A DNA stretch of 64,000 nucleotides, taken from the NCBI RefSeq assembly GCF_902825325.1, contig NZ_CADEAR010000009.1, forward strand, positions 62,001 to 126,000, given 5' to 3'. Under the pieces are notes generated by a model. That model was not told where the DNA came from. It did no database searches and saw only the letters and a program-made list of their open reading frames with translations. Below, in pieces: positions 20,258-56,410 of this stretch (position 1 is its first letter; every line of letters starts with the position of its first letter). Source of the DNA: Brucella tritici (GTDB taxonomy: Bacteria > Pseudomonadota > Alphaproteobacteria > Rhizobiales > Rhizobiaceae). The position numbers and the translations under genes are program-made.

Positions 20258-20414
20258 AATCGCTCTCTTCCATCCGGACTTTAACCGTCGGCCCCGGCAT
20301 CTCACCGGATCTGCTGACCCTGAACTGAAGCCGAATCGGCCTCTGTACAGGCGCTCGCGGGCTCGAAACGTTCGTTTCATACCGCCGGTGGGGAGTTTCA
20401 CCCCGCCCCGAGAA
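20258..20414 (-). ncRNA. FMN riboswitch (RFN element) upstream of ribH
   Basis: On the minus strand the RFN core blocks appear in order: GGGGCGGGGTGAAACTCCCC, ACCGGCGGTATGA, GCCCGCGAGCG, GGTCAGCAGATCCGGTGAGA, CCGGGGCCGACGGTTA and AAGTCCGGATGGAAGAGAGC. These match the conserved FMN aptamer strings. It ends about 75 bases before the ribH ATG. A small palindrome at 20231-20244 in that gap could belong to the expression platform. FMN binding should reduce ribH expression. Confidence 0.95.
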
Positions 20415-21009
20415 CAAGCCCGCACACCATTGTGCAAGCGCCGCGAAACTATGCTCTCGTAACACGCTTGTCCAGTGAATTGAGGAGGATTTCTGTCTCC
20501 GATTTTTCAGGTTGAAGAGGGCATATTGAGGGTGCAATGCAACAGGAAGTGCGATGCAGAGCACTTCGTTGAGGCTAAGTGGTTAATTTATAAGATCTTT
20601 TCCGATGGAAATTCGCTCTTTGATTCTAATCGATTAAATTTCACCGATTTTATCAATCAAGGGATATTGACACCCTGGCGGGTTATGAGCCTATCCTATG
20701 GTCACATCTTGTCTTGCGGATATTTCGCATCCATGAAAGACAACGTTGTCAATTGTGCTGAAGCGGCGTATGAGTGGGATGGAGGATTTCAGGAAAACGT
20801 CGTGAAGGATGGCCGAGCACAGGTGAAAGCAGATGCTTTCGCATCGTATTGCGGCAGTAAATAGCGGGGTCAGCTGTTTGGAGCAGCCGGTTCTGGGTCC
20901 GTGCCGAGGAGGTGCGGATGGGAATGACGAGACGGATTACCATGGAGAAGCAATGGCTTGTCCGGATATCCGATAGTTATGGTTTCGTTTGTTTCTACGG
21001 GAGGTAGAC
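20415..21009. other. Intergenic region with upstream regions of ribH and the sugar importer
   Basis: About 595 bases between divergent units. I see no convincing gene; a 112-codon open frame on the plus strand here has atypical composition and no ribosome site. A perfect palindrome TAATCGATTA lies at 20627-20636, with the central CG usual in LacI-family operators, upstream of the sugar importer. Its role is only suggested. Confidence 0.4.
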
Positions 21010-42190: not shown

Positions 42191-43932
42191 GCGTGCTTTT
42201 TGAGAAAACTTATCCGCGTACCGTTCATGCGCTTGTCGAGCACTTTCTGAAACCGGAAATGCGCGGCGCGCAGGTAGAAGTCTGGCTGTTCGACGACCAG
42301 CCGAGCCGCTTTGCTGCGGAAGCGAAGCTGCGCGAGGCAGGTGTCGAGGCACGGCTGCGTTCGGCTTACAAACCGTTCCTGCATTTCTTTCTGGAAGAAG
42401 TTGATGGCTCGGCGGTAAAGTCGGCTGCGATCCGATATCCTCGTCATGATGCCTGTGTGCAGAACCGTTTCCTGCTGGAAACCTATCCCTTGTCGGCGTT
42501 GCTGCCGGAGGCGGAAGTGACTTTCGCAGCTTCGGGCAAAGACGATTTTCATTATGACGTCGATCTGGTCTTTGTGGATGGCCATAGCGAGAGCCACCGG
42601 GTTTTTGCACCGAACCGCGTGCATGTGGATTTCATCGGCGAAACGCTTGTGTCGCCAACCGGCTGGCTGACCGTCACACAGGACGGCAAGACCGAAAGCG
42701 CGCGCTATGAGACATCCTATGAAAAGCTGTTTCATGACACGGTTTCAGCCATCGCAGCCCATGACTGGAAGCGCGGCGAACCCTATTTCGATGAGTTGAA
42801 CATCGCCGTCAGTCTGCCGATCACCGACCGCCGCCTGCCTTACGATGAGGAGACGCTGAGCCTCACCGAAGCCATGCACGAGGATATCTATTTCTCGTTG
42901 CTGGAAGTTTTTCAGAAAAAGTCGGGTCGTCCGGTTGGTGACCGCGGCTTGCAACCGGGCCAGATCGTGCCGGAAGTCCGTTTTCGCGATGCCGAACCGT
43001 CAGTCAAAGTGGAAACGCGGCCGCTTTTCACCGATGATGCGCTGACGGCAGAACAGGTCTTGGAGACGGCGCAAGCGCCGCTTTCCGCCGATCAGATACG
43101 CCGTGAAATCGCCAGATTGGGCGGTGAGCCATTCGACGCCAAGACCCGCTCTGGCAGAACGGTGCGCGCGACGTATCGCAAGGGCAGCGATGCCGCGATG
43201 ATGATCAGCGCCGGGCAGCACGCCAATGAAACGACGGGCGTTGTCGGGGCGTTGCGCGCGGCCAACAGGCTTGCTGCGCGCGAAGGCGCGCATTTCACGA
43301 TTTCCCCGCAGGAAAACCCGGACGGATACGAGATACACAAACGGCTTTGCGCACTTCAGCCGCATCACATGCATCACGCGGCGCGCTATACGGCGTTGGG
43401 CGACGATTTGGAATATCGCAATGGCGAGGGACTTTATGAAAAGGCCATTCGCGTTGAGGCGGAAAAGCGGACGGACGCAAAACTGCACGTCAACCTGCAC
43501 GGTTATCCGTCGCATGAATGGACGCGCCCGCTATCCGGCTATGTCCCCCGTTCCTTTGCCATGTGGACCCTGCCGAAGGGCTTTTTCCTGATCATTCGCC
43601 ATCATGCTTCCTGGGAAAGCCAAGCGGAAGAACTGATTGACCGTGTGACGAAACACCTGGCTGCGATTGATGGATTGGTCGCTTATAACAACGCTCAGAT
43701 CAGGCTTTTCGAGCAACATGCAGGCGAAACCGGTTTCCGCATCATCAACGGTTTCCCGTGCCTCGTCGGGGTTGATGACCGGCACACCGTGCCGCTGACG
43801 CTGATCACCGAATATCCGGACGAGACGGTTTATGGCGATGCGTTCGTCAAAGGGCATACGGCGCAAATGGAAACCGTGATGGCATCATATGATGCTTTGC
43901 AAGCACTGTTTCCTTCGGATGCAGTTGCTTAA
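42187..43932 (+). CDS. M14-family zinc metallocarboxypeptidase with long N-terminal region
   Basis: The 581-residue protein has zinc-site candidates His345 and Glu348 in GQHANETTG and His438 in NLHGYPSHEW, with a catalytic-Glu candidate in ITEYPDETVYG, the M14 layout. NPDGYEIHKR is another M14 feature. No signal peptide is seen, so it should be cytoplasmic and act on imported peptides. The first 320 residues match nothing I recognise. It is the last gene of the importer operon and overlaps the permease by four bases. Its stop also overlaps the convergent siderophore ATPase. Confidence 0.82.
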   Translation: MSVLFEKTYPRTVHALVEHFLKPEMRGAQVEVWLFDDQPSRFAAEAKLREAGVEARLRSAYKPFLHFFLEEVDGSAVKSAAIRYPRHDACVQNRFLLETYPLSALLPEAEVTFAASGKDDFHYDVDLVFVDGHSESHRVFAPNRVHVDFIGETLVSPTGWLTVTQDGKTESARYETSYEKLFHDTVSAIAAHDWKRGEPYFDELNIAVSLPITDRRLPYDEETLSLTEAMHEDIYFSLLEVFQKKSGRPVGDRGLQPGQIVPEVRFRDAEPSVKVETRPLFTDDALTAEQVLETAQAPLSADQIRREIARLGGEPFDAKTRSGRTVRATYRKGSDAAMMISAGQHANETTGVVGALRAANRLAAREGAHFTISPQENPDGYEIHKRLCALQPHHMHHAARYTALGDDLEYRNGEGLYEKAIRVEAEKRTDAKLHVNLHGYPSHEWTRPLSGYVPRSFAMWTLPKGFFLIIRHHASWESQAEELIDRVTKHLAAIDGLVAYNNAQIRLFEQHAGETGFRIINGFPCLVGVDDRHTVPLTLITEYPDETVYGDAFVKGHTAQMETVMASYDALQALFPSDAVA

Positions 43933-44687
43933 AGATAATAGACGCCAATACGTTTGCCACTGATGATTTCGACGGCAATCTCCATCTCATAAATGTCTGT
44001 AAGGATTTCCGGATGAATGAGTTCATCCGGACTTCCCTGATGTACCACCTTGCCGTGGCGCATGGCGACTATATGGTCGGAATAACATGATGCGAAATTG
44101 ATATCGTGCAGAACCAGAACGACAGTCTTGCCAAGTTCGTCTGCAGCGCGTCGCAACAGCTTCATCATTGAAGCGGAATGCTTCATATCAAGATTGTTAA
44201 GCGGTTCGTCCAGCAGCACATAATCGGTGTCCTGGCAGAGCACCATTGCCACGAAGGCACGCTGGCGCTGTCCGCCGGAGAGCTCATCCAGAAAACGTCC
44301 ACTCAGATCGCCAAGGCCAAGATAGCTGATGGCCTCTTCGACATGTTTTCGATCATCGTTGTTCGGTCGGCCTTTGGAATAGGGATAACGACCGAAGGTT
44401 ACGAGATCATACACGGTCAAGCGGGAGTTAATCGCGTTTTCCTGCCGCAGTATCGAGAGCCGCTTTGCTAACACATCACCGGATGTCATTGAAACGTCGA
44501 GCCCGTCCACGGTCACGCGGCCCGTGTCCATTGGCAGGAGACGGCTCATCATCGAGAGTAGCGTCGATTTCCCCGCTCCGTTCGGTCCTATGATAGAGGT
44601 TATGCCGCAAGCTGGCAGTTTCAGGGTTACATCATCGACGACAAGTGTGCCGTTGTAGGATTTGCTTACCTGGCTGATTTCTATCAA
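43929..44687 (-). CDS. Siderophore ABC ATPase (FatE/CeuD/YclP type)
   Basis: This 252-residue ATPase has Walker A GPNGAGKST, signature LSGGQRQR, Walker B VLLDEPLNNLD and the switch LVLHDINFAS, all typical of iron-siderophore importers. LRQENAINSRLTVYDLVTFGRYPYSKGR resembles the YclP/CeuD group for catecholate or petrobactin-type siderophores. It overlaps the permease stop by four bases and is the last gene of the uptake operon. Confidence 0.9.
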   Translation of the reverse strand: MIEISQVSKSYNGTLVVDDVTLKLPACGITSIIGPNGAGKSTLLSMMSRLLPMDTGRVTVDGLDVSMTSGDVLAKRLSILRQENAINSRLTVYDLVTFGRYPYSKGRPNNDDRKHVEEAISYLGLGDLSGRFLDELSGGQRQRAFVAMVLCQDTDYVLLDEPLNNLDMKHSASMMKLLRRAADELGKTVVLVLHDINFASCYSDHIVAMRHGKVVHQGSPDELIHPEILTDIYEMEIAVEIISGKRIGVYYL

Positions 44688-45637
44688 CGCGCGTGCCCCC
44701 TGACGAGAAGGATGATGAAGACAAGGCCGCCCAGAAACTCGATAATGACGCTTAGTGCGGTGTTGAACGAGAAAACACGTTCAAGAATGGTCTGTCCGCC
44801 GACTATGCAGAGGATTGCAAGCAAGATGGCTATAGGCAAGATAAACCGGTGTTTTGCCGAACCGGCAAGCATGTAAGCCAGATTAGCGACGAGAAGACCA
44901 AAAAAGGTAATAGGGCCGACCAATGCGGTAGACACGGAAACCAGCACGGTGACCACGAACAGGATCTTGCGCACGATGGGCTGATGATCGACACCCAGAT
45001 TGATTGCCGGATCTCGCCCGAGAGACAGGACATCAAAAACGTATATGAAGCGCAGACCGTACAGCGAAACCGCAGCGACAATGACCACCGATATGATCAG
45101 AATGTCGCTATTGATGGTGTTGAAACTGGCGAAGAAGCGGTCTTGAAGGACAGCGAACAAATTTGGATCAAGCATCCGCTGCATCAGGTTGGAAATGCTG
45201 CGGAAAAAGACTCCGCAGACAACACCGACGAGCATCACGAGATGCAGGCTACGCGCCGCTCCCGAGAAGAGCCAGTAATAGAGCGTACCGGCAAAAACCG
45301 CCATGATGGCGGTTTCAGCTAGAAACCGAACATTTGGCCCCAGCCAGTCGATCTGAACGGCACCGAAGAAGAAGACCACCAACGTCTGGATCAGAATATA
45401 GAGTGCATCGAACCCCATGATTGATGGGGTCAGGATACGGTTGTTTGTGACGGTTTGGAACAATACTGTTGAAACAGCAACCGAATATGCAACCAATATC
45501 ATGGCTGTAAGCTTGGTGCCGCGGAAGGACAGGATAAACGACCAGCTTCCCTTTGCGCCGATTGTCATGAATGCCGTCACTGCAAGCAAAGTGAGTACGC
45601 ACAGCAGCGGAAGGATCAGGGTAGGACGTTTAAGCAA
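44684..45637 (-). CDS. Siderophore ABC permease 2 (FatC/CeuC/YclO type)
   Basis: A TTG at 45637, nine bases after GAGG, gives 317 residues; the alternative start further upstream would add a cysteine-rich stretch from the other permease's coding sequence. About nine or ten hydrophobic segments are visible, as in FecCD-family permeases, with SLGRDPAINLGV and GPITFFGLLVANLAYML as family motifs. It overlaps the end of permease 1 by eight bases and forms a heterodimer with it. Confidence 0.85.
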   Translation of the reverse strand: MLKRPTLILPLLCVLTLLAVTAFMTIGAKGSWSFILSFRGTKLTAMILVAYSVAVSTVLFQTVTNNRILTPSIMGFDALYILIQTLVVFFFGAVQIDWLGPNVRFLAETAIMAVFAGTLYYWLFSGAARSLHLVMLVGVVCGVFFRSISNLMQRMLDPNLFAVLQDRFFASFNTINSDILIISVVIVAAVSLYGLRFIYVFDVLSLGRDPAINLGVDHQPIVRKILFVVTVLVSVSTALVGPITFFGLLVANLAYMLAGSAKHRFILPIAILLAILCIVGGQTILERVFSFNTALSVIIEFLGGLVFIILLVRGHAR

Positions 45638-46634
45638 GGCGTGAACCTCGCCGCAACAGCAGGTAGAGGAAGATTGCACTTCCTACGACCCCCATCATGG
45701 TGCCAATAGGAATTTCGTACGGGAAACGAACCAACCGCCCGACGATGTCACATGCAAGAACAAGTCCCGCGCCGAGAACTGCCACCCATGGCACCGCGCG
45801 CCGCATATTATCACCTATGAACATGCTGACAACATTCGGGACGATAAGACCGAGAAACGGTATCATTCCGACTGTCACAACGACTGATGCGCTAACCATC
45901 GAAACAATAACTAGGCCAAGCGTAACCACGCGCCGGTAATTTAGTCCAAGATTGGTAGTGAAATCCTCACCCAGTCCCGCAACCGTGAAGCGGTCGGCGG
46001 CGATATAGGCAACAACGGTCAGGAAGAATGCAAGCCACAAGAGTTCGTAGCGTCCACGGAGAACACCGGAAAAATCTCCGGTCGTCCAGGAATTGAGCGA
46101 TTGTAGGAGATCGAAGCGGTAAGCGATGAAAGTAGTTATCGCACTGACGACGCCGCCGAGCATAATGCCGACCAATGGCACCACAAGTACGGACCGCAAC
46201 GGAATTGCCCGGAGAATGCGAAGGAAGAGGGCGGTTCCGGCAAGCGCGGTCAAAGAAGCAACCAGCATTTTTCCGATTACAGGCGTTTCCGGTGCAAACA
46301 ATATGACCAGAAGAATGCCAAGACTGGCAGATTCCACTGTACCGGCCGTTGATGGTTCAACGAAACGGTTGCGTGTCAGCATTTGCATAATCATGCCCGA
46401 AACAGCCATGGACATGCCCGCCAAAATGATTGCAAGGGTGCGTGGAATACGGCTGATGAGCAGAATTTCGGTTGCGCGGTCGGTACTTCCGGTTCCGAAA
46501 AGTGTGCCCAGAGACACATCGCTGACACCGATAAACAGGCTGATGACAGCCAGTACGGCAACAACGGCTATGGCTGCTGCAAGTCCCTTCACGCCCATTT
46601 CCTGTTCTATTGCCTGATCGCGAATTCGGGCCAT
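45630..46634 (-). CDS. Siderophore ABC permease 1 (FatD/CeuB/YclN type)
   Basis: From ATG 46634 the protein is 334 residues (ATG 46598 is possible). It is a FecCD-family permease: ISRIPRTLAIILAGMSMAVSGMIMQMLTRNRFVEPSTAG is the conserved block after helix 2, and GMIPFLGLIVPNVVSMFIGDNMRRAVPW the cytoplasmic coupling region. It lies 37 bases after the binding-protein gene. It pairs with the second permease to pass the ferri-siderophore into the cytoplasm. Confidence 0.88.
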   Translation of the reverse strand: MARIRDQAIEQEMGVKGLAAAIAVVAVLAVISLFIGVSDVSLGTLFGTGSTDRATEILLISRIPRTLAIILAGMSMAVSGMIMQMLTRNRFVEPSTAGTVESASLGILLVILFAPETPVIGKMLVASLTALAGTALFLRILRAIPLRSVLVVPLVGIMLGGVVSAITTFIAYRFDLLQSLNSWTTGDFSGVLRGRYELLWLAFFLTVVAYIAADRFTVAGLGEDFTTNLGLNYRRVVTLGLVIVSMVSASVVVTVGMIPFLGLIVPNVVSMFIGDNMRRAVPWVAVLGAGLVLACDIVGRLVRFPYEIPIGTMMGVVGSAIFLYLLLRRGSRLA

Positions 46635-46671
46635 CTGTGGATGGCCCGACCGGATTGGGTTTGGAAAGCTG

Positions 46672-47601
46672 TTACTTCGCTTTGTCGAAAGCCTGTGAAA
46701 GCTGATCGATCGTGCCGTGAAGCGCGCCGAGGCCACCGCCGATCAGATACCAGTTCTGAGCGTTCAGATAGACGAGCTGATCTTTTTTCCAGGCATTGGT
46801 CTGGTGCACGAGTTCGTTATCGAGAACCTGCTTGGCTGAATTACCTTCACGACCAATGGCGGCATCGCGGTCAATGACAAACAGCCAGTCGGGATTGGTT
46901 TCGAGGATGAATTCCGAACTGATGGGCTGGCCATGATTGCCGATTGAAAGATCGGGTGCTGCAGGCTTGACCCCAAAGCTGTCATGCAGGACGCCGAAGC
47001 GCGAACCTGGGCCATAAGCGCTGATCTTGCCGCCGGACGTGAGGATCAGGAGGCCGGCGCCCTTGTTGGCGGCCTTTTCTTTCAACGCAGCAAGTGCGGC
47101 ATCAAGCTTCTCGGCTTCTGCCTTCGCTTCTGCTTCCTTCCCGAAAATCTGGCCAAGTTTCTCGACGTTGGCTTCCGTATCGGCGATGAAATTCTTCGCG
47201 TTGGTCGTCAGATCGATGGTGGGAGCAATTTTTGAAAGCTCACCATATTTTGCGGCCGAACGACCCGCTACGATGATCAGGTCCGGTTCTGCTGCATTGA
47301 CGGCTTCATAGTCCGGTTCGAACAATGTGCCGATTTTAGCATAATCGTCGCTCTGATATTTCTTCAGATATTCGGGGAAGGATATGCCGCTTGGAACACC
47401 CGTTACCTTGACACCAAGACGGTCCAAATTATCGAGAGTGCCGAGATCGAAAACCAATACCTTTGCCGGTGAGGCTGGCACCACTGTCTCACCCTGAGCA
47501 TGCTTGATGGTTAGATCCGCAGCATTTGCAGTTGCAGCAATGCCCATCGCCATGATGGCGGCACCACACAAGCGTGTAACCTGTTGAGCGATATTCAGCA
47601 T
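46672..47601 (-). CDS. Periplasmic siderophore-binding protein (FatB/CeuE/YclQ type)
   Basis: From ATG 47601, with AAGGA nine bases upstream, the protein is 309 residues. A signal peptide ends ANA near residue 27. The mature part (PAKVLVFDLGTLDNLDRLGVKVTGVP, then EPDLIIVAGRSAAKYGELSKIAPTIDLT) fits the family-8 binding proteins of the CeuE/YclQ group, which bind catecholate siderophores and their linear breakdown products. No lipobox cysteine is present. It links the outer-membrane receptor and the esterase to the permeases. Confidence 0.88.
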   Translation of the reverse strand: MLNIAQQVTRLCGAAIMAMGIAATANAADLTIKHAQGETVVPASPAKVLVFDLGTLDNLDRLGVKVTGVPSGISFPEYLKKYQSDDYAKIGTLFEPDYEAVNAAEPDLIIVAGRSAAKYGELSKIAPTIDLTTNAKNFIADTEANVEKLGQIFGKEAEAKAEAEKLDAALAALKEKAANKGAGLLILTSGGKISAYGPGSRFGVLHDSFGVKPAAPDLSIGNHGQPISSEFILETNPDWLFVIDRDAAIGREGNSAKQVLDNELVHQTNAWKKDQLVYLNAQNWYLIGGGLGALHGTIDQLSQAFDKAK

Positions 47602-47674: not shown

Positions 47675-48583
47675 TCAGTTGTTTTTTGCCTCGGGGTTTT
47701 GTCCGAGCAGAATGAAATTGAGGCTGTCTCCAACGGTGAGCGGGATCATCGAGCCGTGGCTTTCATCTTCGAAACGATGAAAGGCAGCATCCATCCGCGG
47801 TAATTCTGAAAGCTCTTTGAAGACATCTGAACCGGAAGGTCCGCCACGGAGTTTTTTAAGCCGTTCATTGTCCTGCTTCGTCTGACCGGGGCGACTCCCA
47901 CGCTTGCCGGAAGTTTCTATGAGCAAACGGATCGGACGAGGGGCATCCTTGAAACGCGTGATGAACTGATCTTTATCGTTTAAAATTGAGCGGTCATTCC
48001 ACCAGATTGACGGGTCTGCCGCACTATAGCTCTGGAAGGAATCCGTGTGGCTGAACAGAGCATAAAGGGTGAACAATCCGCCCAGAGAGTGGCCGAACAG
48101 AGCCTGCCGGTCTTTGTCGACGTTGAAACGCTTTTCGATTTTGGGCTTCACCTGATTGTTTATGAAATCGAAGAAGGCATCCCGTCCTCCCGTATTCGGC
48201 ACATTGAAGTGAACCGGGATCAGGTCGGCAGGCGTCGAAGGTGTAAGGTCAAAATATCTCAGGCGAACAATTTCATCCTGATCGTCCGTCGGGTAGCCGA
48301 TACCGACAAATACAGCCTTTAGGGCGGGGTTTTCTGCCATGAGTTTTGCCGCGATCGGCAACATGCGATTGCCGTCGACCATGTATACGACAGGATAACC
48401 GCCTTCGGGCGCAGTCTCTTTCGGCGCAGCGGTGAATATACGATAGGCGATGCCGTTAGCTTCCAGATCAAAGGACGAAGTGACAGGCCCGGCAGCCTGC
48501 ACGCTGGAAGCTGTAAGTATCCCTGCCATTATCAGGCACACCTTTTTTAAGATATTCGTCAGTACGCTCATATGAGCATCCAT
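47675..48583 (-). CDS. Periplasmic alpha/beta-hydrolase, siderophore esterase-like (IroE/Fes/BesA)
   Basis: The 302-residue protein begins with a signal peptide (ILKKVCLIMAGILTASSVQA). The esterase core has VVYMVDGNRML, the nucleophile elbow GHSLGGLFTLYALF (Ser in GHSLG) and ESHGSMIPL near the end with the catalytic His. This is the D-family esterase fold of IroE and BesA, which linearise enterobactin-type trilactones in the periplasm. Its place between the receptor and binding-protein genes supports that role. Confidence 0.82.
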   Translation of the reverse strand: MDAHMSVLTNILKKVCLIMAGILTASSVQAAGPVTSSFDLEANGIAYRIFTAAPKETAPEGGYPVVYMVDGNRMLPIAAKLMAENPALKAVFVGIGYPTDDQDEIVRLRYFDLTPSTPADLIPVHFNVPNTGGRDAFFDFINNQVKPKIEKRFNVDKDRQALFGHSLGGLFTLYALFSHTDSFQSYSAADPSIWWNDRSILNDKDQFITRFKDAPRPIRLLIETSGKRGSRPGQTKQDNERLKKLRGGPSGSDVFKELSELPRMDAAFHRFEDESHGSMIPLTVGDSLNFILLGQNPEAKNN

Positions 48584-48633: not shown

Positions 48634-50862
48634 CTAAAAGCGGGAGGTCATACCGACCCAGAGGCGGCGACCGTCGACGACTGTATTGAAGTCGTCTACA
48701 TCGATCTTCTTGTCGAAGATGTTGTAAACGGCAGCGTTCAGGGTGACATTCTCGCTGAAATCGTATGAACCGCCGATATCGAAGGTCGCATAGGGCTTAT
48801 ATTTGCGAGCGATCACCTTGCCGTTTCTGTAGACTGGTTCACCGGCTGTTCCGATACGTGCACCGGCATTGGTTTCTTCGCCGTGGTAATTACCGGCAGC
48901 CCATGCACTCAAGCCTTCAACCGGCGTTATCCAATCTGCGCGCAAGCTGGCCATGTGCTTGGGCGTACGCGTTAGCGGCAATCCTTTATAATCACCTGTC
49001 TGCTGTTCCGAGTCCGTATAGGTATAATTGCCGCGTACGGTAATTGTGTCAGTTGCTTCCCAGTTGAGGGTCAACTCCACACCTTGCATGACGGCTTCAT
49101 CGATGTTGAAACTGTACCAGAGACGATAGTTCGGATCTTCGCTCCAGCGAACCGGATTGCCGTTGGCGTCCGTCACTAATGCGTTGCTGATCTTGTCCTT
49201 GAAATCTGTGTAGAAATAAGTTGCGCCAAGACGAAGCCCGGACTGGTTGTCCCAGAGGACACTGGCTTCATAGCTTGTGCTTTTTTCGGGCTGCAGGTCC
49301 GGATCACCGATGATCACACCGCAGGTGCCGTCCGGTCCGTAGGAGCAACCTGCACCGCCCGTTGTATAAGCATAGCCCGGAGCGATTGTGCGCAGTTCCG
49401 GTGCACGGAAGCCGGTGGAAATACCGCCTTTAAACGTTAGTTGTTCAGTCGCGTGCCAGACGGCATAGCCGCGGGGGCTGAAATGTGAGCCGTAAATTTG
49501 ATGGTCATCCATACGCAGTCCGCCCGTCAGGGCGAAATCCGGTGTGATCCACCATTCGTCTTCAGCAAAGAGGGCCCACTGGCGAACACTGAACTCCTCG
49601 TCCAAGCCTGTGCGGCGTCCTGGATTCTGGTCGGTTAGCACCGATTGTGTGAACTGCCCGCCGGTTACGAGTGTGTGATTGCCGTAGAATTCGAACGGTG
49701 TTGTGAACTTGCCATCGAGCACTGAATTGCGGATATGCGGCGAACGCAGATTCTCGACGTAGCTCTTAGTCTTGTTATCCCAGTTGAAATTGGTGCGTTC
49801 GGCCCACTCCTGCTGGAATGAGAATTCCGATGTGGTCGGTCCCCAGCGGCCAGTATGGCTGATCGACCAATGATCGCGGTCATTATAATTGTAGGAGTCC
49901 GAGCCTGATGCCGCCGTGTTGCCAACAGTCGCGTCGCGGCGGAGGCGAGTCTTGCCCAATTCGAGCATGATATCATGATCTTCATTAGGCGTAAGGGTGA
50001 TGCGCCCGGTAATATCGATGTCTTTCTGTTCAGGCGTACCACTGACGATATTATCTTCCTGGCGCTTGAGACCGCGTCCCCAGACCTGAACACCGACAAG
50101 GTTCGGGACCAACGGCCCGGTCATGTAATAGGACCCCTGCAACGAATTTCCGAATTTGGAATGCTGCTGAACCGTGCCATCGACAGAGAACGAACCGCTC
50201 CACGTATCGGATACTTTTTTGGTGATCACGTTGATGACACCGCCCATAGCGTCCGATCCGTAGAGCGAAGACATAGGGCCGCGAATGACTTCGATCCGTT
50301 CTATGGCATTAGCAGGCGGCAAGAAGCTCTGTTCAAAGCCCGAGTTTCCATTGGTACGTGCATCACGCGTGCTTTGGCGCTTCCCGTCAACGAGCAGTAG
50401 AGTATAAGAGCCGGGGAGACCGCGAATATAGATGTCGCGTTCGGCAGCAGGGCCGGTAACAGCTACGCCCTGAACATCTTTCAAAGCGTCGGTCAGATCG
50501 CGATAGGCGCCTTTTTCCAACTCTTCACCAGGAACCACCGTGATACTCGCCGGAGCGTCAGTGATATTCTGCTCGAACCCGGTTGCAGTGACGACGATCT
50601 GGTTGAGCTTGACGGCACCATCGGCGGTTGTTTCGATGCCCGCTTCTGTTGCCGATGACTTTTTCTTCTTAGCGCTGGCTTCGTCTGAAGTTGCCTCTTC
50701 TGCGGCGTTGGTTGCCGTTTGCGCGATCGCAATCGTTTCGCCCAGGAGTAGTGCTGTGGAAAGACAGGTCCCGGCAAGAAACGCTCTATAAATGAGCGGT
50801 TTGCTGGCCAAACGCCTGTTTTGTGTACCGTCGGCCCACAATCCCCGAAACAAGCTGGTCAT
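48634..50862 (-). CDS. TonB-dependent catecholate siderophore receptor (FepA/IroN-like)
   Basis: About 742 residues from ATG 50862 (GTG 50871 also in frame). A signal sequence ends near IAIAQ (about residue 48). A plug domain follows with a TonB-box-like QIVVTATGFEQN, RDLTDALKDVQGVAVTG, RDIYIRGLPGSYTLLLVDGKRQ and RIEVIRGPMSSLYGSDAMGGVINVITKK. The 22-strand barrel ends in the typical aromatic C-terminus GRRLWVGMTSRF. It binds ferric siderophores outside the cell and imports them with TonB energy. A Cys pair (CSYGPDGTC) may close an external loop. Head gene of the uptake operon. Confidence 0.92.
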   Translation of the reverse strand: MTSLFRGLWADGTQNRRLASKPLIYRAFLAGTCLSTALLLGETIAIAQTATNAAEEATSDEASAKKKKSSATEAGIETTADGAVKLNQIVVTATGFEQNITDAPASITVVPGEELEKGAYRDLTDALKDVQGVAVTGPAAERDIYIRGLPGSYTLLLVDGKRQSTRDARTNGNSGFEQSFLPPANAIERIEVIRGPMSSLYGSDAMGGVINVITKKVSDTWSGSFSVDGTVQQHSKFGNSLQGSYYMTGPLVPNLVGVQVWGRGLKRQEDNIVSGTPEQKDIDITGRITLTPNEDHDIMLELGKTRLRRDATVGNTAASGSDSYNYNDRDHWSISHTGRWGPTTSEFSFQQEWAERTNFNWDNKTKSYVENLRSPHIRNSVLDGKFTTPFEFYGNHTLVTGGQFTQSVLTDQNPGRRTGLDEEFSVRQWALFAEDEWWITPDFALTGGLRMDDHQIYGSHFSPRGYAVWHATEQLTFKGGISTGFRAPELRTIAPGYAYTTGGAGCSYGPDGTCGVIIGDPDLQPEKSTSYEASVLWDNQSGLRLGATYFYTDFKDKISNALVTDANGNPVRWSEDPNYRLWYSFNIDEAVMQGVELTLNWEATDTITVRGNYTYTDSEQQTGDYKGLPLTRTPKHMASLRADWITPVEGLSAWAAGNYHGEETNAGARIGTAGEPVYRNGKVIARKYKPYATFDIGGSYDFSENVTLNAAVYNIFDKKIDVDDFNTVVDGRRLWVGMTSRF

Positions 50863-50916
50863 TTTCGTCACCGTTTAAAGTTGAGTTTTCAACTCTCCTT
50901 ATGTATGCCAGTAAGG

Positions 50917-50931
50917 TGACGTCAATCGTCA
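50917..50931. promoter_or_regulatory. TGA-N9-TCA, possible RirA (IRO) box
   Basis: TGA (50917-50919), nine bases, TCA (50929-50931) matches the minimal RirA iron-responsive box recalled from rhizobia. The pattern is short and can occur by chance; it is listed because it lies beside an ICE-like site in an iron-uptake promoter region. Confidence 0.3.
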
Positions 50932-50934
50932 TGT

Positions 50935-50951
50935 TTTATAAGCGTTCTAAG
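50935..50951. promoter_or_regulatory. ICE-like palindrome, candidate Irr site
   Basis: Twelve of the 14 defined positions match the rhizobial iron-control element TTTAGAA-N3-TTCTAAA (here TTTATAAGCGTTCTAAG). It lies 35 bases before the LysR-TrpD2 gene and about 70 before the receptor gene, so it could control both. Confidence 0.5.
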
Positions 50952-50985: not shown

Positions 50986-52461
50986 ATGTCAGGCAAGCAA
51001 GTGAAAACGCAGCAACAAACGGGGAAGAGCGAGAATGAAAGCCTTCGTTTGGGGCAATTGCGCCTGCTGATCGCGCTTGATGCACTTCTTGTGGAAGGCA
51101 GTGTTGGCGGTGCTGCCAAGCAGATGGGTCTAAGCATTGCTGCTATGAGCCGACTGCTTGGCCAGATTCGCGAAAAGTTCAATGATCCCATTCTGGTTCG
51201 TTCCGGTCGAAGCATGATAGCGACGCCGAAAGCCGAAGCCTTGCGTGGACGTCTGCGGCGGCTAGCGAATGAAGCCGAAACGCTGTTGAACCTAGACCTG
51301 ACCGAATTGCCGAAATCGACTTGTACCGGACACCATGGGTGGAAGCGAAGCGCCATTACGGCGCCGCCTCCGCTAGGCATTCGTAAGATCGTAGAGCTCG
51401 AAAACCATCCAACACCAGAACAGCTCGCCGCACAATTCGCGAACATTCAGGGTGAGAACGATCCGGTCAGAAGGCTTGCAAAATACATCGCTGTTGTCGG
51501 GCGGAAGGTCGGGCATACCCGTCCTCTCGAAATGTCGGAAGCCGAGGATGCATTCACGACAATCTTTACGGGTAACGCCGATCCGATGCAGATCAGCGCA
51601 TTGCTTCGGCTCATTCATTATCGCGGAGAAACTGCTCCGGAACTTGCAGGCATGGCGCGTGCGGCGAGACGAATTTATTCGGTGGATCCGGGATTGAACA
51701 TACCGGCACTGGATTGGCCAGCCTATCTGTCACCGAACTCCATGCAGTCGCCCTGGTTCATGCTTTCGGCCTTGCTTGTAGCAAGAGCCGGTTATCCCGT
51801 TGTTCTGCATGGCAACTGCGGCACAGGCGAAGTCTCGGGCAAGCTTGAGATGGCGGCTGAAGCCATCAACCTACCGATTGCAACATCGCATTCGCTGGCG
51901 GAGAGTGCTTTGAGAGCACACGGTATCTGCTTCATGCCGATGGCTGGTTTTGCGCCCCAGATTCACGCGTTGTTTGCGCTTTATCCATTATTCGAGTCAC
52001 GCTCATCGATGAATAGCCTTGTCCATCTGCTGAATCCGATGAGTCTCAAAGCATCATTTCTTGGTGTTACGCAACCTACATATCGCGAATTGCACCGCGA
52101 TGCGGCTGTGCTGCTTGGCACGCCGTCGATTTCGGTTGTTTCAACCAGTCGTGATGTTGCCGAGTTGGTTCCACACAGAACGCATACGATCTACAGGCTT
52201 CTCGAGGGACACGAAACGGAAATGTTGCTTCCCACGCTCTCCAGAGAGAGCAGCGACAAGCATTCCAATTTCAGTTCATTCGAATATTGGTATGGTGTCT
52301 GGTCCGGTGCAGCCGTGGATAAGCGTGCAGAAAATACAATCGTCGCCACGGCAGCTATGGCGATGATGACGGCGGTCTCTGCCGAAAACGAAAGCCACGC
52401 GCAGTTCTTTGAGAGAGCTGAAGAACTTTGGCGCAATCGCCATAACCGAGCAGTGGCATGA
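50986..52461 (+). CDS. LysR-type DNA-binding domain fused to a TrpD2/YbiB-like domain
   Basis: One uninterrupted 491-residue frame. Residues 21-83 are a LysR-type helix-turn-helix (LRLLIALDALLVEGSVGGAAKQMGLSIAAMSRLLGQI...FNDPILVRSG). After a linker rich in Pro/Ala, residues about 140-465 follow the anthranilate phosphoribosyltransferase fold: a helical N-domain, then VVLHGNCGTGEVSGKLEMAAEA, CFMPMAGFAPQIHALFALYPLFESRSSMNSLVHLLNP. The GTGGD phosphate loop of true TrpD enzymes is replaced by YLSPNSMQS, so catalysis is doubtful. E. coli YbiB (TrpD2) binds nucleic acid rather than acting as an enzyme. Divergent from the siderophore receptor, it may regulate it. No LysR effector domain is present. 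Confidence 0.8.
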   Translation: MSGKQVKTQQQTGKSENESLRLGQLRLLIALDALLVEGSVGGAAKQMGLSIAAMSRLLGQIREKFNDPILVRSGRSMIATPKAEALRGRLRRLANEAETLLNLDLTELPKSTCTGHHGWKRSAITAPPPLGIRKIVELENHPTPEQLAAQFANIQGENDPVRRLAKYIAVVGRKVGHTRPLEMSEAEDAFTTIFTGNADPMQISALLRLIHYRGETAPELAGMARAARRIYSVDPGLNIPALDWPAYLSPNSMQSPWFMLSALLVARAGYPVVLHGNCGTGEVSGKLEMAAEAINLPIATSHSLAESALRAHGICFMPMAGFAPQIHALFALYPLFESRSSMNSLVHLLNPMSLKASFLGVTQPTYRELHRDAAVLLGTPSISVVSTSRDVAELVPHRTHTIYRLLEGHETEMLLPTLSRESSDKHSNFSSFEYWYGVWSGAAVDKRAENTIVATAAMAMMTAVSAENESHAQFFERAEELWRNRHNRAVA

Positions 52462-52623: not shown

Positions 52624-53799
52624 ATGGTCAATCAAGTGTTCGGCAACGCGGGAACGTCGATTTTCGAGGCTATGTCACGGCTCGCCGTCGAGTGTGGAGC
52701 CATCAATCTGGGGCAGGGGTTTCCAGAAGGCTTTGAACCTGACGAACTTCTTGATGCGGCCGCTCGTGCTCTTCGTGAAACCTCACAACAATATCCACCC
52801 ATGATGGGCCTGCCGGTTCTTCGTCGGGCTGTCGCAGAAAACACTAGACGGTCTCTCGGTCTCGACGTTGATTGGGAAAAGGAAGTTCTGGTGACCTCCG
52901 GAGCGACGGAAGCTCTGGCCGATACGTTTCTGGCACATCTGGATACTGGCGACGAGGTTATTTTGTTCGAGCCGGTTTACGATGCTTATGCAACACTTAT
53001 CCGGCGTGCTGGCGGGAAAGTGGTGCCGGTGCGATTGAGACCACCTCATTGGGAATTGCCGCGAGGTGAACTGGTAAAAGCAATCTCTCCTCGAACCAAA
53101 CTCATTGTCGTCAATACGCCGATGAACCCAATCGGCAAGATATTCGATCCAGATGAGTTGGACTTTCTCGCCGAGCTCGCGATCAAGCGTGACCTTTTGA
53201 TTGTTTCGGATGAGGTCTACGAACATCTCGTGTTCGATGGTCGCCCATTTTATTCTATGTTCGGTGTCGAGAAAGTCCGCGACCGTGTCGTGCGAATTGG
53301 CTCCGCCGGAAAGAGCTTTTCATTGACGGGATGGAAGGTCGGCTATGTGACAGCTTCCACGAAGCTTCTAGCGCCGATTGCGCGTGCCCATCAGTATGTC
53401 ACTTTCACCACGCCGCCGGCATTGCAGTCGGCGATTGCCGTTGGGCTTTCGTTACCTAATAGCTACTTCATTGAGCTCAGGGCATCCCTGGCATCGCGAC
53501 GGGATCTTCTGGTTGATGGACTGAAATCTGCAGGTTTTGATGTCGTGGCGGTCCCTGCCACCTATTTCGTAGTGGCCGATATAGAGGCGCTCGATCCAGA
53601 AGGCGATGATCTCGACTTTTGTCGACGGTTGACGCTTGAAGCAGGTGTAACTCCGGTTCCCATCTCATCTTTTTATGGTGCGCGCGATGTGCGCAGCCAT
53701 GTCCGTTTCTGTTTCGCCAAGCGCGAAGAAACGCTGCTTGAGGCCGTTTCACGGTTGGTTCGCTGGACCAATAAGCACAATTGGCGCGCCGCATCATAG
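52624..53799 (+). CDS. Class I/II PLP-dependent aminotransferase (YbdL/KAT-like)
   Basis: This 391-residue enzyme has the fold-type I pattern: INLGQGFPEGFEPDELLDAA at the start, VTSGATEALADTFLAHLDTGDEVILFEPVYDAY, NTPMNPIGKIF, SDEVYEHLVFDG and the PLP lysine in GSAGKSFSLTGWKVGY. It resembles YbdL and kynurenine/methionine aminotransferases, which transaminate methionine, aromatic amino acids or their analogues. GGGGAGC precedes the ATG. A Met-type ABC importer follows 32 bases later, so it probably acts on the imported compound. Confidence 0.87.
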   Translation: MVNQVFGNAGTSIFEAMSRLAVECGAINLGQGFPEGFEPDELLDAAARALRETSQQYPPMMGLPVLRRAVAENTRRSLGLDVDWEKEVLVTSGATEALADTFLAHLDTGDEVILFEPVYDAYATLIRRAGGKVVPVRLRPPHWELPRGELVKAISPRTKLIVVNTPMNPIGKIFDPDELDFLAELAIKRDLLIVSDEVYEHLVFDGRPFYSMFGVEKVRDRVVRIGSAGKSFSLTGWKVGYVTASTKLLAPIARAHQYVTFTTPPALQSAIAVGLSLPNSYFIELRASLASRRDLLVDGLKSAGFDVVAVPATYFVVADIEALDPEGDDLDFCRRLTLEAGVTPVPISSFYGARDVRSHVRFCFAKREETLLEAVSRLVRWTNKHNWRAAS

Positions 53800-53831
53800 G
53801 CGCGTTCGGAAATCACTACAGGGAAAACAAG

Positions 53832-54629
53832 ATGCATTCAGTTTCATTTTTGCGTGGTGCAGTCACCGCAGCACTCTTTTCAGTGCTCGTCGCTTCACCA
53901 GCGCTCGCGGAAAAAATCCGGTTTGGTGTGACGTCGGGACCGCATGCGGAAATCGCCGCAGCACTCGCGCCCGTTGCCAAGGCAAAGGGGCTGGATATCG
54001 AGATTGTGGAGTTTTCGGACGGCGCACTGATCGACCCGGCAACAAATGACGGCGATCTCGACGCCAATGGCTTTCAGCATACGCCTTATTTCGATCAGCA
54101 GAACAAGGATCGAGGTCTCAACCTCGTGTCCGTTGGTGGACGCACGGTGTTGCTGCCGATGGCTGGTTACTCGCGCAAGTACAAATCTCTTGCTGAATTG
54201 CCTGAGGGGGCGCAAATTTCTGTCCCCAACGATCCCAGCAATGCGGGTCGCGCCTTGAAGCTTCTTGAAGCAGGCGGGGTTATCAAGCTGACGCCGGGTG
54301 TGACTTTCAATGCAACTGAACTCGATATTGTCGATAATCCGAAGAAGGTCAAAATCATTCCGATGGAAACAGCCCAGCTTCCGCGCTCGCTGGAAGACGT
54401 GGATTTTTCCGTTATCACTTCCCATTTTGCACTGAGTGCCGGGTTGGTTCCGACCCGTGATGCGATCCTGATCGAAGACCAGCTATCCGATTATTTCTGC
54501 CTGCTCGCTGTTGCAGAAAAGAACAAGGATGCCCACTGGGTCAAGACGTTGGTCGAAGCCTATAAGTCTCCTGATGTCAAAGCCTTCATCGAGAAGAAAT
54601 TCGATGGCAACATCATAGCGGGTTGGTGA
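53832..54629 (+). CDS. MetQ-like (NlpA family) substrate-binding protein
   Basis: From ATG 53832 the product is 265 residues with a signal peptide ending ALA (residue 26). KIRFGVTSGPHAEIAAALAPVAKAKGLDIEIVEFSDGALIDPATNDGDLDANGFQHTPYFDQ is the NlpA-family start. Unlike E. coli MetQ there is no lipobox cysteine, so it should be free in the periplasm. The family binds methionine or close analogues. The ATPase gene starts two bases after its stop. Confidence 0.87.
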   Translation: MHSVSFLRGAVTAALFSVLVASPALAEKIRFGVTSGPHAEIAAALAPVAKAKGLDIEIVEFSDGALIDPATNDGDLDANGFQHTPYFDQQNKDRGLNLVSVGGRTVLLPMAGYSRKYKSLAELPEGAQISVPNDPSNAGRALKLLEAGGVIKLTPGVTFNATELDIVDNPKKVKIIPMETAQLPRSLEDVDFSVITSHFALSAGLVPTRDAILIEDQLSDYFCLLAVAEKNKDAHWVKTLVEAYKSPDVKAFIEKKFDGNIIAGW

Positions 54630-54630
54630 G

Positions 54631-55764
54631 ATGAACGTGCTGGTGCGGAGCGAATCTGTGTCGAAAGTGGTGCCGGACGAAACGGGTTCGGTTCCGCCAA
54701 TTATCGACATACGCTCGCTGACAAAAACCTATGATGAGAAGGCTGGGGCGGTTATCGATGATGTCTCGCTCAAAATCACGAGGGGAACAATCCATGGCAT
54801 CATTGGTCGTTCTGGTGCTGGAAAAAGTACGCTCGTGCGCTGCCTGAACGGTCTTGTGCATCCAAGCAAAGGAGAAATCTTTGTTTCAGGACGTGAGATC
54901 ACAACATTGCGTCAAGACGAATTGCGACAAGTTCGTCGTGAAGTATCAATGGTATTTCAGCACTTTAGTCTCCTGTCTTCACGAACTGCTTTTGGAAATA
55001 TAGCGCTGCCGTTGGAGCTCGCAGGCATTGGTCGTAGCGCCATAAGAACTCGGGTGAACGATCTGCTCGATCTGGTGGGCCTAAAGGGAAAGGCCGGTGC
55101 CTATCCATCGGAATTGTCTGGTGGTCAGAAACAGCGTGTGGGTATCGCGCGGGCATTGGCTCTGGAACCGAGCGTTTTGCTGTCCGATGAGGCGACATCG
55201 GCGCTTGATCCCGAAACCACAGAACAAATTCTTTCGTTATTGAAAGATATTAATCAGCGGCTGGGACTGACGATTGTGCTCATTACGCATGAAATGGATG
55301 TGGTGCGCCAAATCGCAGACCATGTGACGGTTCTTGATGGCGGCAAAGTCGTTGAAAGCGGAGCAACGTTCGACGTATTTGCCTTTCCGCAATCCCCTAT
55401 CGCCCGGTCGTTTCTGGCAAGCATCGTCGCCCACGATTTACCGCCGGAAGTATCGCAGCGGTTGCTTCTACAACCTGTTGTCGGGTCAGACCCGGTCCTG
55501 CGTATCATATTTTCTGGTGAAGCCGCCCATGAACCGGTCGTTGCGACGCTCGTGAGACGCTTCGGGATAAATCCGAACATACTGCATGGGCGCATAGACT
55601 ATATCGGTGGCAAACCTCTCGGCATCATGACACTCATTGCTGAGGGCGGTTCGGCCGATCTCGCGGACGTCTGCAATTATCTTTCTTCACTCAATCTTCA
55701 TGGAGAGGTCATCGGTCATGTTGTCCGATCTGCTTCCACCGGCGCTCGTCGGGCTTTTGCTTGA
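54631..55764 (+). CDS. MetN-like ABC ATPase with C-terminal NIL domain
   Basis: A 377-residue ATPase starting two bases after metQ. Walker A is GRSGAGKST, the family pattern VSMVFQHFSLLSSRTAFGNIALPLELAG is clear, and the signature LSGGQKQR and Walker B VLLSDEATSALDPE follow; the usual DEP is DEA. The C-terminal 110 residues (VLRIIFSGEAAHEPVVATLVRRFGINPNILHGRIDYIGGKPLGIMTLIAEG) form the NIL ligand-binding domain that in MetN inhibits transport when methionine is bound. The frame runs 47 bases into metI. Confidence 0.9.
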   Translation: MNVLVRSESVSKVVPDETGSVPPIIDIRSLTKTYDEKAGAVIDDVSLKITRGTIHGIIGRSGAGKSTLVRCLNGLVHPSKGEIFVSGREITTLRQDELRQVRREVSMVFQHFSLLSSRTAFGNIALPLELAGIGRSAIRTRVNDLLDLVGLKGKAGAYPSELSGGQKQRVGIARALALEPSVLLSDEATSALDPETTEQILSLLKDINQRLGLTIVLITHEMDVVRQIADHVTVLDGGKVVESGATFDVFAFPQSPIARSFLASIVAHDLPPEVSQRLLLQPVVGSDPVLRIIFSGEAAHEPVVATLVRRFGINPNILHGRIDYIGGKPLGIMTLIAEGGSADLADVCNYLSSLNLHGEVIGHVVRSASTGARRAFA

Positions 55765-56410
55765 ATCGCTGAAGCAGACGGCCACTATGGTGGCCGCATC
55801 TGCCATTTTGTCCACTTTGATCGGCCTGCCGCTCGGTGTTGCACTTGTTGTCACCAGTCCGGGGCAGTTTCTTGAGCGCTCGGTTTTCAATCGCGTTGCA
55901 GGCACTATCGTCAATTTGGTTCGATCTACACCGTTTATCATTCTGATGGTGGCTATCATTCCGTTGACGCGTCTGATCGTAGGAACAACCGTTGGTACTT
56001 ATGCTGCCGTCGTGCCGCTGACAGTGGCCATCACCCCTCTCTATGCGCGTCTCGCCGAAACCGCGATGCGTGAAGTAGACCAAAGCCTGATTGAAGCCGC
56101 CGAAAGCATGGGCGCTACACCCATTCAGATCATCCTCAAGGTGCTGTTGCCTGAAGCGCTGCCCGGAATCATTGCAGGGCAAACGGTTACACTTGTCAGT
56201 CTTGTTGGATATTCTGCGATGGCAGGAACAGTTGGCGGTGGCGGTTTGGGCGATCTCGGAATTCGCTTCGGATATCAGCGCTTTATGCCGGAAGTTATGG
56301 TCGCTGTTGTCATCATTCTGGTTGCAATCGTGCAATCCATTCAGATCACGGGCGACCACGCCGCTCGTTTCGTCAATCACCGCGTGGCGCGCAGCCGTCG
56401 CTCACGCTGA
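55718..56410 (+). CDS. MetI-like ABC permease
   Basis: From ATG 55718, after GGAGAGG, the permease is 230 residues with five hydrophobic helices. VRSTPFIILMVAIIPLTRLIVGT and the EAA loop DQSLIEAAESMGATPIQIILKVLLPEALPGI are MetI motifs, as is SAMAGTVGGGGLGDLGIRFGYQRF. It overlaps metN by 47 bases, so the two are coupled. It forms the channel for the MetN-driven importer. Confidence 0.9.
   Translation: MLSDLLPPALVGLLLESLKQTATMVAASAILSTLIGLPLGVALVVTSPGQFLERSVFNRVAGTIVNLVRSTPFIILMVAIIPLTRLIVGTTVGTYAAVVPLTVAITPLYARLAETAMREVDQSLIEAAESMGATPIQIILKVLLPEALPGIIAGQTVTLVSLVGYSAMAGTVGGGGLGDLGIRFGYQRFMPEVMVAVVIILVAIVQSIQITGDHAARFVNHRVARSRRSR

What the first reader, a model, noticed from the sequence alone, without database searches (positions are those of the whole stretch)
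50986..52461. LysR-type HTH fused to a TrpD2/YbiB-like fold, divergent from a siderophore receptor
One continuous frame joins a LysR helix-turn-helix (about 21-83) to an anthranilate-phosphoribosyltransferase-like body that keeps the HGN block but lacks the GTGGD phosphate loop. The LysR effector domain is replaced. E. coli YbiB, a TrpD2 protein, is a DNA/RNA-binding protein, so this could be a regulator whose sensor derives from a nucleotide-sugar enzyme, possibly reading PRPP or a nucleic acid. It shares a short intergenic region with an iron receptor that carries an ICE-like box. This is the best candidate here for an undescribed regulatory design.
Basis: partly seen in the sequence, partly recalled or inferred. 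Interest (0 to 1): 0.75.

Follow-up and report, generated by a model that had tools for sequence, protein, structure and literature searches.

The report
LysR regulator with TrpD-like sensor domain
A bacterial gene switch of a very common type has had its usual sensing half replaced by a reshaped, probably non-catalytic relative of a tryptophan-making enzyme, and it sits head-to-head with an iron-siderophore receptor gene in many related bacteria, so it probably tunes that receptor.

Summary
ORF 50986-52461 (+, 491 aa) joins a LysR-type HTH_1 (25-84) to a two-domain TrpD2-like body (NCBIfam PRK09071, 470 bits) with no LysR_substrate match. It is not a join error: one frame holds both parts in 31 of 35 genus genomes at 70% identity or more (Brucella sensu lato, Ochrobactrum group) and in 17 other genera of the family plus one genome of another family. 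HTH, linker and body are under purifying selection. All 39 fused bodies analysed form one clade among single-domain PRK09071 proteins. In 37 of 40 loci the divergent neighbour is a TonB receptor, in three another siderophore-uptake gene; stand-alone relatives lie in siroheme, dsr or tus neighbourhoods in 22 of 33 loci. An Irr-type (ICE) box lies between the genes. Best reading: a local regulator of catecholate-siderophore uptake whose effector domain was swapped once for a remodelled TrpD-type domain. PRPP sensing is unlikely: the phosphate loop was lost before the fusion and the substrate Arg column is Tyr or His in 39/39. Nucleic-acid sensing is less likely but not excluded. Ligand, operator and fold (structure prediction was off) remain untested.

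The parts
50986..52461 (+). fusion gene, 491 aa: LysR-type HTH joined to a TrpD2/PRK09071-like body
   Evidence: conserved in one frame in other genomes
51058..51237 (+). HTH_1 DNA-binding domain (residues 25-84)
   Evidence: Pfam PF00126, profile 1-60/60, E 3.8e-10; dN/dS 0.03-0.11 for residues 21-110
51238..51315 (+). probable LysR-type linker helix (residues 85-110)
   Evidence: inference from recalled LysR anatomy; several NCBIfam LysR models match on to about residue 101
51502..51669 (+). helical bundle domain Glycos_trans_3N (residues 173-228)
   Evidence: Pfam PF02885, E 1e-12
51709..51735 (+). LDWPAYLSP loop (residues 242-250) where TrpD has the GTGGD phosphate loop; S249 and P250 in 39/39 fusions; A 74/75 and G 60/75 in stand-alone proteins
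51766..52383 (+). alpha/beta domain Glycos_transf_3 (residues 261-466), with fusion-specific Y333, H347, R389, D390, W435
   Evidence: Pfam PF00591, E 7.8e-11; column counts
48634..50871 (-). divergent TonB-dependent receptor, catecholate type by best hits (PRK13483, PRK13513, IreA, CirA models, below cut-offs), 745 aa from the first GTG
47675..48583 (-). putative (perhaps enterochelin-esterase-like) esterase
   Evidence: Pfam Esterase 3.2e-16; weak PRK10439
46672..47622 (-). periplasmic iron-siderophore binding protein (Peripla_BP_2; best NCBIfam SstD, below cut-off)
45630..46736 (-). FecCD permease
44684..45679 (-). second FecCD-type permease
   Evidence: same homology cluster c3 as the Pfam-typed FecCD
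43929..44687 (-). ABC transporter ATPase
50935..50951 (.). ICE (Irr) box TTTATAAGCGTTCTAAG
   Evidence: 12 of 14 specified bases; related motif in this genome at mbfA-like and rirA-like genes
50917..50931 (.). TGA-N9-TCA dyad (RirA IRO-like, motif recalled), nearly conserved in the genus, not across other genera
50878..50901 (.). element E (AAcTTGAGt-N6-[GC]TCnnCTTA) beside the receptor start; 55-58 bases from the ICE match in 22 of 28 loci

Best explanation
A local transcription regulator of the divergent catecholate-siderophore uptake genes. The LysR-type winged HTH binds the shared intergenic region. The body, which descends from a stand-alone TrpD2-like (PRK09071) protein, takes the place of the LysR effector domain: it would supply the second dimer contact and a hinged two-domain cleft whose closing on a small molecule alters DNA binding. 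Iron status is read separately by Irr at the ICE box; the fusion would add specificity, most likely for the siderophore or something derived from it. Shown: architecture, one clade of fused bodies, conservation, pairing with receptor and uptake genes, the Irr-type box, loss of TrpD key residues. Inferred: DNA binding, target, dimer geometry, cleft closing, ligand class.
For: Domains. HTH and body in one frame in 56 of 146 locus frames scanned (some genomes twice), no HTH found in the other 90; five long stand-alone frames scanned with Pfam show no added domain. 39 fused bodies lie on one side of a branch (SH-aLRT 100; 1 change, shuffled mean 33; quick tree). Immediate divergent neighbour is a TonB receptor in 37 of 40 loci and an uptake gene in 3. 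In 8 loci of other genera the receptor-fusion pair stands without binding-protein or permease genes nearby (L162, L163, L165, L167, L168, L173, L174, L180). In five loci the receptor is only 28-36% identical to the window's (L047, L166, L171, L175, L185). In the family sample a receptor match (E <= 1e-50) is in 29 of 30 fusion genomes and in 19 of the other 267. Identities of fusion and receptor are correlated (r 0.47, 35 loci; r 0.35, 25 loci outside the genus; 0 of 2000 permutations each). Purifying selection on HTH, linker and body. Fusion-specific near-invariant residues S249, P250, Y333, H347, R389, D390, W435. Irr-type box. No DhbA/EntA match over the cut-off in this genome (best 169.5 bits, cut-off 300), so the siderophore may come from outside.
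Against: No binding or expression data. No operator is proven for the fusion: an ICE-like box also stands before 5 of 8 close receptors that lack the fusion, weaker forms of element E before most of them, and E also before another TonB receptor of this genome. Receptor matches without the fusion occur in 18 of 297 genomes, nine of them close, so the receptor can exist without it. Correlated identities may reflect common descent. The fold and pocket were not modelled. The Arg column that binds anthranilate in TrpD is Tyr or His, which argues against simple reuse of that site for a carboxylated catechol such as 2,3-dihydroxybenzoate.
Confidence: 0.66

Rival explanations
1. The body is only an oligomerisation scaffold. 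The fusion is a constitutive, ligand-blind activator or repressor of the receptor, and all sensing is done by Irr (and perhaps RirA).
For: TrpD2 and TrpD proteins are homodimers (passages); phosphate loop and substrate-binding Arg are gone; an Irr-type box is present.
Against: Residues at positions that in TrpD are in the phosphate loop (249, 250), the anthranilate Arg (333) and the metal-site region (389, 390) are fusion-specific and nearly invariant in 39 fusions; a mere scaffold would not need them. That they line a pocket is inferred from the alignment only.
Confidence: 0.17
2. The body keeps the YbiB/TrpD2 way of working: it binds nucleic acid or an acidic protein tail, and the HTH directs it.
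For: The body is TrpD2-like; YbiB binds DNA and ObgE (passages). A basic residue near the YbiB Arg123 column is kept (Lys/Arg at 286 in 35 of 39 fusions). Net charge of fusion bodies (median +1) is not lower than that of stand-alone ones (median -4; window -4).
Against: YbiB Arg92 column is R in 1 of 39 fusions (S 22), against R or K in 44 and H in 14 of 75 stand-alone proteins; column 93 is R or K in 15 of 39 against 71 of 75; columns 333 and 347, basic in 74 of 75 and 75 of 75 stand-alone proteins, are Tyr/His and mostly His.
Confidence: 0.1
3. A live phosphoribosyltransferase or nucleoside-phosphorylase-like enzyme tethered to a DNA-binding domain (PRPP reader or trigger enzyme).
For: TrpD-type domains by profile; HG motif and Arg339 universal; the metal-site Glu column 393 is E in 29 and Q in 10 of 39.
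Against: No GTGG string in any of 39 fusions or 75 stand-alone bodies; Gly390 of the GxDE region is Asp in 38/39; the Asp at 392 is Ala in 38/39 (and lost in the stand-alone proteins too); anthranilate Arg column replaced in 39/39.
Confidence: 0.04
4. The tight neighbourhood is inheritance or co-transfer of an iron island; the fusion regulates something else.
For: One clade of fusions; some transfer (G139 of another family lies inside it).
Against: The divergent pairing survives rearranged uptake operons, different receptors and deep divergence (fusions of other genera, all but the nearest, 40-51% identical to the window's).
Confidence: 0.05

Closest known systems
LysR-type transcriptional regulators (LTTR)
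   Same: N-terminal HTH_1 followed by a probable linker helix; divergent from the presumed target, as LTTRs often are (recalled)
   Different: no PF03466 LysR_substrate domain; a TrpD2-like body instead
TrpD2 family (E. coli YbiB) and stand-alone PRK09071 proteins
   Same: two-domain Glycos_trans_3N/Glycos_transf_3 body, no PRPP loop; PRK09071 model passes its cut-off (470 vs 257 bits)
   Different: carries an HTH; several basic residues replaced; genomic context is siderophore uptake and not dinG (YbiB) or siroheme/dsr/tus genes (PRK09071)
IrgB-IrgA of Vibrio cholerae (recalled; the paper searches gave none)
   Same: LysR-type regulator divergent from an enterobactin-type receptor
   Different: IrgB, as recalled, is an ordinary LTTR with its own effector domain
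ModE (recalled)
   Same: LysR-type HTH joined to an unrelated ligand-binding domain (molybdate MOP domains)
   Different: different sensor fold and ligand

Membership tests
LysR-type transcriptional regulator | N-terminal HTH_1 winged helix | tested here: met
   PF00126 1-60/60, 40 bits, cut-off 26.6
LysR-type transcriptional regulator | C-terminal LysR_substrate (PF03466) effector domain | tested here: not met
   no match at E <= 0.1; the same library finds it in an ordinary LTTR of this genome (L284)
LysR-type transcriptional regulator | sequence-specific DNA binding and tetramer | not testable with these tools
   needs protein work
TrpD2 (YbiB type) | TrpD-like two-domain fold | tested here: met
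   PF02885 and PF00591 above gathering score; PDB sequence matches to TrpD and YbiB; by sequence only, no model
TrpD2 (YbiB type) | no PRPP (GTGGD) motif | tested here: met
   LDWPAYLSP in its place
TrpD2 (YbiB type) | basic groove residues Arg92 and Arg123 of YbiB | tested here: inconclusive
   Arg92 column R in 1 of 39 fusions, S in the window; Arg123 column R in 3 of 39, but Lys or Arg two places on (286) in 35 of 39, which may be its counterpart
PRK09071 (NF006564) | whole-protein score over the curated cut-off | tested here: met
   470.3 bits against 257
PRK09071 (NF006564) | stand-alone protein in siroheme/dsr/tus neighbourhood (my own criterion, not a curated one) | tested here: not met
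   0 of 40 fusion loci have such genes; 22 of 33 stand-alone loci do
TrpD anthranilate phosphoribosyltransferase | GTGGD loop and anthranilate-binding Arg | tested here: not met
   both replaced; TIGR01245 76.6 bits against a cut-off of 199

The most novel reading that the evidence does not exclude
An undescribed class of one-component regulators in which a TrpD-type two-domain fold, stripped of catalysis, has become the sensor of a siderophore (or its breakdown product) and replaced the LysR effector domain in a single event. It would be a domain swap between two hinge-closing folds that created substrate-specific control of iron-siderophore receptors across a bacterial family.
Probability: 0.35. 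Interest if true: 0.8.

Novelty: new variant of a known kind. Interest (0 to 1): 0.62.

Why it matters
LysR-type regulators are among the most numerous bacterial regulators, and their effector domain is nearly always the same fold (recalled). A conserved, selected and widespread swap for an enzyme-derived fold shows how new sensors can arise, gives a likely role to a branch of the poorly understood TrpD2/PRK09071 proteins, and supplies a concrete candidate regulator for siderophore receptors in a large family of bacteria. Because the PRK09071 model passes its cut-off, automatic annotation would probably call it a glycosyl transferase (inference).

Tried and rejected
Sequencing or assembly fusion: rejected. 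PRPP sensor: made unlikely. Nucleic-acid groove as in YbiB: weakened, not excluded. 2,3-Dihydroxybenzoate in the old anthranilate site: my own idea, weakened because that Arg column (R193 of the M. tuberculosis enzyme, placed by the alignments) is Tyr or His in 39/39 fusions. Donor of the HTH: the nearest ordinary LTTRs in 12 fetched loci have no match to the window's receptor or uptake proteins within two genes; no donor found. Fusion operator: a search for 4-base dyads gave no convincing cross-genus candidate; element E is undecided (see full report). TGA-N9-TCA (RirA IRO) across genera: 2 of 28, expected 1.8. Defence role: no PADLOC match. RNA element in the intergenic region: none at Rfam gathering scores. 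Papers on dsr genes: the search caught dsRNA and was useless.

Rows left out: the tree used 75 of 87 stand-alone frames (left out: L032, L085, L099, L131, L136 with stop flags; L110-L112, L114, L117, L123, L133 not selected) and 39 fusions. The Mantel test used 35 of the 37 loci given, two lacking a receptor ORF over 600 aa; L039, L045 and L048 were not given. The genus intergenic alignment lacks L158, not located by my script. The element-E matrix was built from 20 of the 28 loci it was then scored on, so its 28 of 28 is partly circular. Shuffle controls used 60 to 100 shuffles per sequence; those keep base content only.

Full report
What is there. The frame 50986-52461 (+) is open for 491 residues. 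Pfam gives HTH_1 at 25-84, Glycos_trans_3N at 173-228 and Glycos_transf_3 at 261-466, all above their gathering scores; no LysR_substrate match was listed. NCBIfam gives PRK09071 (NF006564) over 153-489 with 470 bits against a cut-off of 257; YbiB and TrpD models match more weakly, below their cut-offs. By sequence, solved relatives are TrpD enzymes and YbiB for the body and LysR-type regulators for the N-terminus. Downstream of the divergent receptor (48634-50871, -) lie an esterase, a periplasmic iron-siderophore binding protein, FecCD permeases and an ATPase.

It is real and old. In the genus (named relatives are mostly Brucella and Ochrobactrum records), 33 of 35 genomes match at E <= 1e-60: 31 near full length at 70% identity or more, G001 split by a frame break (85% complete, 7% contaminated) and G1227 at 38%; G012 is 72% complete and G1221 has no such match. 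In a sample of 297 genomes of the family, 36 have a PRK09071-type match at E <= 1e-50. By my reading of frames and HTH matches, 30 are fusions, 5 are stand-alone (G304, G335, G398, G416, G461) and 1 (G347) is a decayed fusion with the receptor also broken. The fusions outside the genus fall in 17 other genera of the family (one). Among 146 locus frames scanned with the window's own HTH, 56 (some genomes twice) carry an HTH in the same frame and 90 show none; the carriers are from this family except G139, of another family of the order. Five of the longest stand-alone frames, scanned with Pfam, show no further domain. PRK09071 matches over the cut-off are found in 27 of 249 genomes of the order sample, 33 of 337 of the class and 56 of 398 of the phylum, the own genome and a few fusions counted. 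A quick tree of 118 bodies puts all 39 fusions on one side of one branch (SH-aLRT 100), among stand-alone proteins of the same class; the branching just below it is unresolved. dN/dS within the genus, where it could be estimated (some pairs are saturated), is 0.03-0.11 for the HTH, at most 0.12 for the linker and 0.04-0.07 for the body.

It is tied to siderophore uptake. In 40 fusion loci (the window, 12 relatives by name, 26 from other genera or families, and G1227) the immediate divergent neighbour is a TonB receptor in 37, the binding protein in 2 and a permease in 1. The pairing survives where the uptake genes are not nearby and where the receptor is of another type. In the family sample a receptor match is in 29 of 30 fusion genomes and in 19 of the other 267, the decayed G347 among them (both drew 297 genomes and list the same handles where visible). 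So the receptor can live without the fusion, but in these 40 loci the fusion was never away from uptake genes. By contrast the stand-alone proteins lie within about 10 kb of dsr genes (next to a DsrP/NrfD-like gene and a CobB/CobQ-like gene), nirB/nasA/cysG, or tus genes in 22 of 33 loci; 0 of 40 fusion loci have such genes.

What the body can and cannot do. The loop that holds the PRPP phosphate in TrpD (GTGGD; passages, PMC9835598) is DW(P/S)xY-AGxxR or similar in stand-alone proteins, SYNGARKQ in YbiB and LDWPAYLSP in the window protein; no GTGG string occurs in 39 fusions or 75 stand-alone bodies, so its loss came before the fusion. The column of the TrpD Arg that binds anthranilate (R193 in the M. 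tuberculosis enzyme; passages, PMC9835598; placed) is Arg or Lys in 74 of 75 stand-alone proteins and Tyr 35 or His 4 of 39 in fusions. Column 347 is Arg in 75 of 75 and His in 37 of 39. YbiB Arg92 and Arg123 matter for DNA and ObgE binding (passages, PMC10123104). The Arg92 column is R in 1 of 39 fusions, but only R 31, K 13, H 14 of 75 in stand-alone proteins. The Arg123 column is R in 3 of 39, yet position 286 beside it is Lys or Arg in 35 of 39, so that residue may be kept with an alignment shift. The overall charge of the fusion bodies is not lower (median +1 against -4; window -4). New near-invariant residues appear: S249 and P250 (39/39), R389 (39/39), D390 (38/39), W435 (37/39). This looks like a pocket rebuilt for a new ligand and not like a decayed one. 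That is inference; no model could be made.

How the region is controlled. The 114-base intergenic region is strongly conserved in the genus. It has an ICE (Irr) box; the consensus TTTAGAANNNTTCTAAA is recalled. In 17 of 28 loci (window included) the best match has at least 11 of 14 bases; in 11 it has fewer. In the window's genome a looser pattern with up to one mismatch is found 22 times per strand against 10 for the reversed control; the window's own box has two mismatches to it and is not in that list. Published work finds Irr boxes at mbfA (passages, PMC3413700) and at rirA-ybaK (passages, PMC10374146). An ICE-like box also stands before 5 of 8 close receptors without the fusion (p <= 0.0125) and before none of 10 distant receptors, so it follows the receptor and is best read as an Irr site.

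A second element, AAcTTGAGt-N6-[GC]TCnnCTTA, lies 55-58 bases from the best ICE match in 22 of 28 loci and covers the probable -10 region and leader of the receptor. Its matrix scores are 21.0 to 34.2 in the 28 fusion loci (20 of which made the matrix), -3.1 to 20.0 before the eight close receptors without the fusion, and 23.8 before one distant receptor without it (L260). In the window's genome the pattern with one mismatch occurs at three further places, one of them before another TonB receptor beside an AraC gene. The strong form thus nearly tracks the fusion, and E may be its operator, part of it, or a RirA-like iron site (TGA-N9-TC); the data do not decide.

Most likely mechanism. LysR-type regulators join an HTH-linker dimer to an effector domain that closes on a ligand and forms a second dimer contact (recalled). 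TrpD is a homodimer with its active site in the hinge between two domains (start of the abstract, passages; PMC9835598), and YbiB is a homodimer (passages). The swap would keep the working logic: ligand closes the cleft, the tetramer shifts on DNA, and the receptor is turned up or down, on top of Irr. Because the genome has no DhbA/EntA match over the cut-off, the natural signal may be a foreign catecholate siderophore. Steps shown: architecture, descent, pairing, iron-control box, residue changes. Steps inferred: DNA binding, target, ligand, sign of regulation.

Novelty. No listing in the held library pointed to it in these searches (titles and starts of abstracts seen only, unless passages are cited above): LysR with anthranilate phosphoribosyltransferase, fusion and siderophore (3 papers); TrpD2 with YbiB; LysR with YbiB; a LysR/phosphoribosyltransferase domain set; LysR with TonB receptor terms; TrpD2 with LysR. 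The defining YbiB paper (2015) is not held, so it may mention HTH fusions. I rate it a new variant of a known kind: a LysR-type HTH with a sensor fold not recorded in what I could search.

Noticed in passing
L186, L188-L191, L193, L198, L200, L202, L204-L211, L213-L216, L218: Stand-alone PRK09071 proteins lie near dsr genes (with a DsrP/NrfD-like and a CobB/CobQ-like gene next to several), nirB/nasA/cysG or tus genes in 22 of 33 loci: a shared siroheme or sulfur-relay link that suggests an unassigned role for this protein.
   Followed up: partly
window 50878-50901; L302 about 1501-1524; L260: Element AAcTTGAGt-N6-[GC]TCnnCTTA at 55-58 bases from the ICE match in 22 of 28 fusion loci; also before another TonB receptor beside an AraC gene in this genome and before one distant receptor without the fusion. 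Operator of the fusion, RirA-like site or leader element.
   Followed up: partly
window 20258-20419 (-): FMN riboswitch (Rfam RF00050, 112.6 bits).
   Followed up: no
L035/L185 (G139, another family of the order): A fusion from another family lies inside the fusion clade, which suggests transfer between families.
   Followed up: no
L268 (G347): Decayed copy: HTH and body in separate short frames and the neighbouring receptor with several stops; described only.
   Followed up: no
L048 (Brucella cytisi), L039 (Brucella oryzae): Several genes broken into short frames in these two assemblies, which looks like sequencing error.
   Followed up: no
L047, L166, L171, L175, L185: The receptor at the fusion locus is only 28-36% identical to the window's while the fusion stays; looks like receptor replacement.
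   Followed up: partly
window 52624-56410 (+): Aminotransferase (PRK08912 over its cut-off) followed by ORFs that look like a methionine-type ABC transporter (not typed); present downstream in only part of the genus.
   Followed up: no
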